Source: an uncultured Acidimicrobiales bacterium (lineage in GTDB: Bacteria; Actinomycetota; Acidimicrobiia; Acidimicrobiales; SZUA-35). Taken from it: a stretch of 64,000 nt of DNA. A program made the translations under genes and the position numbers. The notes beneath the pieces are model-generated. The model was given only the letters and a program-made list of their open reading frames with translations, was not told where the DNA came from and ran no database searches. Location: the NCBI GenBank assembly GCA_937922785.1, contig CALAJQ010000034.1:31403-95402 (forward strand). The letters run 5' to 3'. This document shows, one piece after another, positions 15,708 to 16,244 of the stretch (its first letter is position 1; every line of letters begins with the position of its first letter).

Positions 15708-16244
15708 CTAGGAGTATTGCGCAGCTAGCTCCAGAACCTTGTCTTGATCGAACGCCCCACGCCAGCCAAGTAGCGGTTGGCCGGAAGGGTCTAACAAGAT
15801 GGCGTTCGGTTGACTGCGGATCTGGTAGAAGCTCCAGGTATCAAAGCTCGGGTCCCAGTACATTTCAACGCCATCGGTTCCGGTGCTAGTTAAGAACTGC
15901 TGGGCTTCCCCAAGTGAGTCCTGTGCCCCTAGGCCCACGACTCGAACTTTGTCACCGTGTTCTTGCACAAACTGTGCAACTTCAGGCGCTTCGCGCCTGC
16001 ATGTGGGTCAATGAGGCGCCCAGAACCAAACCAAGATGGCTTGATCACCACCAGCTAGCTGGCTGCCGAAGTTTACTGTGGACCCTTCGTTGAGACTTAC
16101 AACATCAACTGAGGGGAAAGTCTCGCCGCCTGCTTCGCCACTAGGGGCCGAGGCAGCGGGTTCTTCGGTGGATCCGCAGGCGCCAGCAGCGAGCCCAAGG
16201 GCCATCACTACCGCGGCTGCGCGCGTTTTCATAGCTACAGACAC
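15708..16244 (-). CDS. Candidate selenoprotein: thioredoxin/TlpA-like redoxin lipoprotein with in-frame TGA (Sec) at 16008..16010
   Basis: ORFs 16008..16244 (lipoprotein signal MKTRAAAVVMALGLAAGACGS ... ILVWFWAPH) and 15708..15968 lie in the same frame. The single intervening stop is TGA, at the first Cys of WCxxC: WFWAPH[U]PTCRREAPEVAQFVQEHGDKVRVVGLGAQDSLGEAQQFL. Alternative ATG start at 16232. Confidence 0.82.
15983..15999 (-). promoter_or_regulatory. Candidate bacterial SECIS hairpin
   Basis: Minus strand after the TGA: CCCACATG-CAGGCGC-GAA-GCGCCTG; 7-bp perfect stem, 3-nt loop beginning with G, loop starts 16 nt downstream of the TGA. Confidence 0.7.

What the first reader, a model, noticed from the sequence alone, without database searches (positions are those of the whole stretch)
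15708..16244. Candidate selenoprotein: TlpA/thioredoxin-like lipoprotein with UGA at the first Cys of CxxC (UxxC)
Seen directly: ORFs 16008..16244(-) and 15708..15968(-) share one frame, and the only stop between them is TGA at 16008..16010. Reading through gives ...ILVWFWAPH-U-PTCRREAPEVAQFVQEHGDKVRVVGLG..., where WFWAPWCPTC would be expected in a TlpA/DsbE/MPT53-type redoxin, so the TGA sits on the redox-active N-terminal Cys. The downstream half stays redoxin-like to a normal TAG. Established knowledge: Sec often replaces this Cys in thioredoxin-fold proteins. Residue -1 is His rather than the usual Trp, which argues against a single recent nonsense mutation. Standard gene callers would split this into two genes.
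Basis: partly seen in the sequence, partly recalled or inferred. Interest (0 to 1): 0.93.

Follow-up and report, generated by a model that had tools for sequence, protein, structure and literature searches.

The report
Selenocysteine TlpA-like redox lipoprotein gene
A gene that normal software would cut in two at a TGA "stop" is really one gene for an exported redox protein whose active site carries selenocysteine, and it belongs to a large, apparently unnoticed set of such proteins in one order of actinobacteria.

Summary
The finding holds up. Window 16244..15708 (-) is one 178-codon gene with an in-frame TGA at 16010..16008, at the first position of the UxxC active site of a TlpA/DsbE/MPT53-type thioredoxin-fold protein, probably a lipoprotein. 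The host genome has the whole selenocysteine system: selA next to selB, tRNA-Sec(UCA), and a selD and fdhA that each carry their own Sec codon. The 30 best loci in the host and related genomes all keep TGA at this column. Cys relatives read WFWAPHCPxC there. All 63 genomes with a listed TGA-containing match have selA; of nine with Cys-only matches, seven lack it. A hairpin 35 nt after the UGA, loop GUU, fits the bacterial SECIS model; the window's copy changes four stem bases and two amino acids yet keeps every pair. The host encodes six such Sec paralogs, one with a double-Sec UxxU site, and some with a second hairpin type (GGUC loop). UxxC TlpA-like selenoproteins are already catalogued, so this is a new member of a known kind. 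The expansion in this order and a head-to-head molybdoenzyme partner appear unreported. Redox role and partner are inferred; Sec insertion has no experimental proof here.

The parts
15708..16244 (-). Selenoprotein gene, 178 codons, Sec at codon 79 counted from GTG 16244; TlpA/DsbE/MPT53-like thioredoxin fold
16008..16010 (-). TGA read as selenocysteine, first residue of the U-P-T-C active site
   Evidence: same column is TGA in 30 of 30 best loci and Cys in Cys homologs
15999..16001 (-). TGC, resolving Cys of UxxC
   Evidence: invariant column in alignment A1
15963..15979 (-). SECIS-like hairpin: 7 pairs, apical loop GUU, 35 nt between UGA and loop
   Evidence: covariation and synonymous-recoding test; fits the published bacterial model
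15983..15999 (-). First hairpin (GAA loop, 15 nt after the UGA); stable here but only 59% of cells pair across relatives
16176..16232 (-). Signal peptide from the alternative start ATG 16232 to the lipobox-like Cys codon 16178..16176
   Evidence: sequence; the Cys is invariant in A1 and several relatives have a canonical LAAC-type lipobox; lipid anchor inferred
16374..18032 (+). Divergent membrane-anchored PF00174 molybdoenzyme (SorA/SoxC/YedY-like), conserved head-to-head neighbour
   Evidence: found in 22 of 30 loci; families

Best explanation
This is a genuine selenoprotein gene. During translation the UGA at 16010..16008 is decoded as selenocysteine by the host's SelB and tRNA-Sec, guided by a hairpin with a GUU loop 35 nt downstream (shown by comparative evidence, not by experiment). 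The product is exported, most likely as a lipoprotein, and folds as a TlpA/DsbE/MPT53-like thioredoxin domain with a U-P-T-C active site. It most likely works outside the cytoplasmic membrane as a thiol-disulfide (selenenylsulfide) oxidoreductase, probably a reductase fed with electrons across the membrane. Its partner may be the divergently transcribed SorA/YedY-like molybdoenzyme, whose thiols it might keep reduced. Chemistry, direction and partner are inferred. Separate confidences: about 0.97 for the Sec reading, about 0.7 for an extracytoplasmic thiol oxidoreductase, about 0.3 for the molybdoenzyme link.
For: Complete Sec machinery: SelA and SelB adjacent, tRNA-Sec UCA, SelD, plus canonical Sec sites in SelD (GAGUGCK) and FdhA (RTUHAPS). 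TGA at the same column in 30/30 best loci at 44-59% identity; the column is Cys in Cys homologs. TGA-bearing copies only in selA+ genomes: 63/63 against 2/9 for Cys-only genomes, p=2.4e-8. SECIS-like hairpin: 0 of 500 synonymous recodings fold as well, z -3.7; 24/30 Sec genes at p<=0.05; Cys gene L053 z 0.0; three pairs with changes on both sides, two of them in the window gene itself. Purifying selection after the TGA (dN/dS 0.07-0.25). Fold: DsbF 3ios, MPT53 1lu4, ResA.
Against: No experiment. The 3' hairpin alone is -7.2 kcal/mol, marginally short of the -7.5 in the published SECIS model. The lipobox of this copy (AGAC) is non-canonical. No DsbD/CcdA Pfam match in the host, so the electron donor is not shown. 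The molybdoenzyme link is missing in 8 of 30 loci (one of them cut by the contig end).
Confidence: 0.95

Rival explanations
1. Pseudogene or sequencing error: a Cys codon mutated or misread to TGA.
For: A single TGC/TGT to TGA change at this position would look the same in one genome.
Against: Same TGA in 30/30 loci from independent assemblies; dN/dS well below 1 after the TGA in close pairs; selA co-occurrence; compensated stem changes.
Confidence: 0.01
2. UGA is reassigned genome-wide (for example to Trp or Gly), or is suppressed, so no selenocysteine is involved.
For: Read-through of UGA is required under either view.
Against: TGA ends 15 of 57 long ORFs of the window and many orthologs of this gene end in TGA; the column is Cys, never Trp or Gly, in homologs; a dedicated tRNA-Sec with UCA anticodon is present.
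Confidence: 0.01
3. UGA serves mainly as a regulated stop: low selenium gives a short exported fragment, and the full protein is made only when selenium is plentiful.
For: Competition between termination and Sec insertion is general for bacterial Sec codons (established knowledge).
Against: Nothing points to a role for the 78-residue fragment, which lacks most of the fold. Partly compatible with the main explanation.
Confidence: 0.03

Closest known systems
'Thiol-disulfide isomerase-like' UxxC selenoproteins (PF13905 / cd02966; first reported from the Sargasso Sea; PMC1088965, PMC9312934, PMC13188914)
   Same: Same domain class (Thioredoxin_8 is the best Pfam match) and same UxxC motif
   Different: Reported as a few marine metagenome sequences; their sequences could not be compared here. 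The present family is exported, has the PH-U-PxC signature and is multi-copy in an actinobacterial order
Prx-like thiol:disulfide oxidoreductase selenoproteins (PF00578, UxxC/UxxU; PMC13188914, PMC9312934)
   Same: Sec in a thioredoxin-like motif, UxxU forms known; PF00578 also matches here
   Different: The window protein scores better to Thioredoxin_8 and Redoxin, and its solved relatives are DsbF, MPT53 and ResA
M. tuberculosis DsbF and MPT53/DsbE (PDB 3ios, 1lu4)
   Same: Fold, exported thioredoxin domain, best sequence and structure matches
   Different: They have Cys and a Trp before the site; 23-26% identity; no Sec
ResA / CcmG / TlpA thiol-disulfide oxidoreductases
   Same: Fold and extracytoplasmic membrane-tethered design; structure matches
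   Different: 18-19% identity; NCBIfam cut-offs not reached; no cytochrome c maturation context seen

Membership tests
Bacterial selenoprotein | In-frame TGA aligned with Cys of homologs | tested here: met
Bacterial selenoprotein | Host has SelA, SelB, SelD and tRNA-Sec | tested here: met
[quoted passage not shown]
   15963..15979: 7 bp, loop GUU, 35 nt; model from PMC13188914
Bacterial selenoprotein | SECIS energy of -7.5 kcal/mol or lower | tested here: inconclusive
   3' hairpin stretch alone -7.2; both hairpins together -19.8
Bacterial selenoprotein | Selenium present in the protein | not testable with these tools
   needs 75Se labelling or mass spectrometry
TlpA/DsbE/MPT53-like thioredoxin-fold oxidoreductase | Thioredoxin fold with CxxC-type site at the start of helix 1 | tested here: met
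   helix 80-96 starts right after U79
TlpA/DsbE/MPT53-like thioredoxin-fold oxidoreductase | Export signal and membrane anchor | tested here: inconclusive
   hydrophobic N-terminus with invariant Cys; lipobox non-canonical in this copy; no signal-peptide predictor available
Named NCBIfam models (DsbE TIGR00385, ResA NF002854, TlpA NF047696, MauD TIGR02661) | Score above the curated cut-off | tested here: not met
   e.g. DsbE 29 bits against 123; no model reached its cut-off. It works like these but is not filed as one of them
'Thiol-disulfide isomerase-like' UxxC selenoprotein (PF13905) | PF13905-class domain with Sec at the first position of UxxC | tested here: met
   PF13905 6e-10 over cut-off; family definition from PMC9312934; no direct comparison with the published sequences was possible

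The most novel reading that the evidence does not exclude
An actinobacterial order (Acidimicrobiales-like) runs a large, unannotated selenium-based redox network outside the cell membrane: several Sec TlpA-like lipoproteins per genome, including a diselenide-capable UxxU clade, with two distinct SECIS types, and with the window member paired to a membrane-anchored SorA/YedY-like molybdoenzyme.
Probability: 0.4. Interest if true: 0.72.

Novelty: new member of a known kind. Interest (0 to 1): 0.52.

Why it matters
In a set of 5.8 billion predicted proteins the only relatives found were Cys forms, as expected if gene callers stop at the TGA; dozens of genomes here are probably mis-annotated at this gene. 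The host has at least eight selenoprotein genes (six TlpA-like, FdhA, SelD), which makes it selenoprotein-rich by the definition of six or more used in PMC5029168; that survey named Deltaproteobacteria, Clostridia and Synergistetes as the rich groups, not actinobacteria. The two covarying hairpin types give a well-defined natural set for studying how SelB recognises its targets outside E. coli, and the UxxU clade raises the question of a working diselenide site.

Tried and rejected
Pseudogene, sequencing error and code reassignment were tested and rejected. The genome-contig scan gave only one relative, a Cys form in an Acidimicrobiia MAG. A scan of the window for further TGA read-through genes gave none convincing; its filter was strict and would have missed this gene too, because an antisense ORF overlaps it. 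The DsbD/CcdA Pfam family was not found in the host, so the canonical electron donor is not shown. The search for conserved palindromes upstream of relatives left out the last 240 nt before the Sec codon, where the window's own palindrome lies, so it is not informative. Literature searches for Acidimicrobiia or actinobacterial TlpA selenoproteins found nothing relevant; the library lacks most subscription journals. The first hairpin (15983..15999) was considered as the SECIS but is conserved as a pairing in only 59% of cells, against 89% for the second.

Full report
Observation. The minus-strand frame 16244..15708 is open except for a TGA at 16010..16008 and ends in TAG. Read with TGA=U it gives a 178-residue protein with the site WFWAPH-U-PTC. 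The joined protein matches Thioredoxin_8, Redoxin, Thioredoxin and AhpC-TSA across the join. A model built on a 25-row alignment has pLDDT above 90 from residue 41 on. Its best solved matches are M. tuberculosis DsbF (3ios) and MPT53 (1lu4), followed by ResA; a profile search of PDB sequences puts the same two first.

Does the host use selenocysteine? Yes. The host genome (45 contigs, about 96% complete) has SelA, SelB starting about 65 bases after the SelA match, a tRNA-Sec with anticodon UCA well above the Rfam threshold and SelD. SelD has an in-frame TGA in the well-known GAGUGCK-type site, and a formate dehydrogenase has one in the UHAPS-type site. TGA is also an ordinary stop here: it ends 15 of 57 long ORFs of the window, and many relatives of this very gene end with TGA.

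Is the TGA conserved? Of 149 genomes (the host and its relatives), 102 have a match. The 30 best loci, including this gene, all have TGA at exactly this codon. The nearest proteins in a 5.8-billion set are all Cys forms; the 12 read out have WFWAPHCPxC, so His before the site is a family feature and the Sec column is Cys in homologs. Among the genomes in the printed match list, all 63 with a TGA-containing copy have SelA; of nine with Cys-only copies, two have it (Fisher p=2.4e-8). This tally uses only listed matches. A tree of 70 domains puts the window gene in a supported, all-Sec group of 25 and needs at least six Sec/Cys changes overall. dN/dS after the TGA is 0.07-0.25 in close pairs.

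SECIS. Downstream of the UGA the RNA forms a hairpin at 15979..15963: seven pairs and a GUU loop 35 nt after the UGA. The published bacterial model asks for G in one of the first two loop positions, often followed by G or U, and a spacing of 16-37 nt (PMC13188914). Random synonymous recoding of the same peptide never folds as well (0 of 500; z -3.7), and 24 of 30 Sec genes pass at 5%. The Cys gene L053 shows nothing (z 0.0). Most relatives read GUCGAGCA-GUU-UGCUCGA. The window reads GUUGCACA-GUU-UGUGCAA: its Glu->Ala and Ala->Val replacements change four stem bases and keep both pairs. A third pair is C-G in nine sequences and U-A in eight. This is the strongest single argument, because the protein changes look forced by the RNA. 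The folded stretch with this hairpin alone is -7.2 kcal/mol, marginally short of the published -7.5 limit; both hairpins together reach -19.8.

Paralogs. The host has five more Sec copies: C6 (HUPTC), C20 (WUPHC), C5 (WUPTC), C8 (WUPHU, two Sec) and C10 (DUQTC), plus one Cys copy on C19. The double-Sec form recurs in seven related genomes (WUPFU or WUPHU, L089-L095) and forms one supported group. The copies with WU or DU sites share a different hairpin with a GGUC loop 26 nt after the UGA and strong covariation: 96% of cells paired, score 0.40 against 0.23 +/- 0.04 in shuffles, 0 of 500. GGUC letters also occur in the apical loop of the E. coli fdhF element (from memory, a lead only).

Neighbourhood. 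In 22 of 30 loci a PF00174 molybdoenzyme lies head-to-head with the Sec gene, as at 16374..18032. It resembles SorA, SoxC and MsrP/YedY below their cut-offs, and several of its nearest relatives are named as Acidimicrobiales MAGs. The pairing suggests shared regulation or a redox partnership; this is inference. Beside the L051 relative lies a multi-pass protein with a CcdA-like NPCGFALVPAYL motif. The host has two homologs, one next to the Cys paralog on C19, but no family library recognised it.

Comparison with the known. UxxC proteins of this domain class are catalogued as predicted selenoproteins (PMC1088965, PMC9312934, PMC13188914), and UxxU is known in PF00578 proteins. No NCBIfam model reaches its cut-off on this protein. 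I therefore rate the gene a new member of a known kind. Apparently new, as far as the open literature searched shows, are the multi-copy expansion in an actinobacterial order, the UxxU clade and the molybdoenzyme pairing. An earlier survey lists the selenoprotein-rich groups without actinobacteria (PMC5029168).

What is shown and what is inferred. Shown by computation: the gene structure, the Sec machinery, the conserved TGA, the covarying hairpins, the fold. Inferred: actual Sec insertion, the lipid anchor, the direction of electron flow, the partner. No experiment was available.

Noticed in passing
L058 (own genome C8:93880-94188) and L089-L095: TlpA-like protein with two in-frame TGA codons at both active-site positions (UxxU, WAPWUPHU/WUPFU), conserved in seven related genomes; a potential diselenide site.
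   Followed up: partly
L056-L058, L060, L089-L095, alignment A3: A second SECIS-like hairpin type with invariant CGGUCG (GGUC loop), 26 nt after the UGA, strongly covarying; differs from the GUU-loop hairpin of the window gene.
   Followed up: yes
16374..18032 (+): Divergent SorA/YedY-like molybdoenzyme with N-terminal membrane segments, head-to-head with the Sec gene in 22 of 30 loci.
   Followed up: partly
16247..16268: Perfect inverted repeat AACTATCAA-TCGG-TTGATAGTT in the divergent intergenic region, just upstream of GTG 16244; a possible operator.
   Followed up: no
L107, L108, and beside the TlpA gene in L051: Multi-pass membrane protein with a CcdA-like NPCGFALVPAYL motif; neither Pfam nor NCBIfam recognised the L051 copy; L108 lies next to the host's Cys TlpA paralog.
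   Followed up: partly
L102 (G247, same phylum, outside the order): A TGA-containing homolog at 48% identity outside the order, suggesting wider spread or transfer.
   Followed up: no
L109 (own genome C3) and L012 (own genome C16): Sec-containing formate dehydrogenase (RTUHAPS) and Sec-containing SelD (GAGUGCK) in the host.
   Followed up: yes
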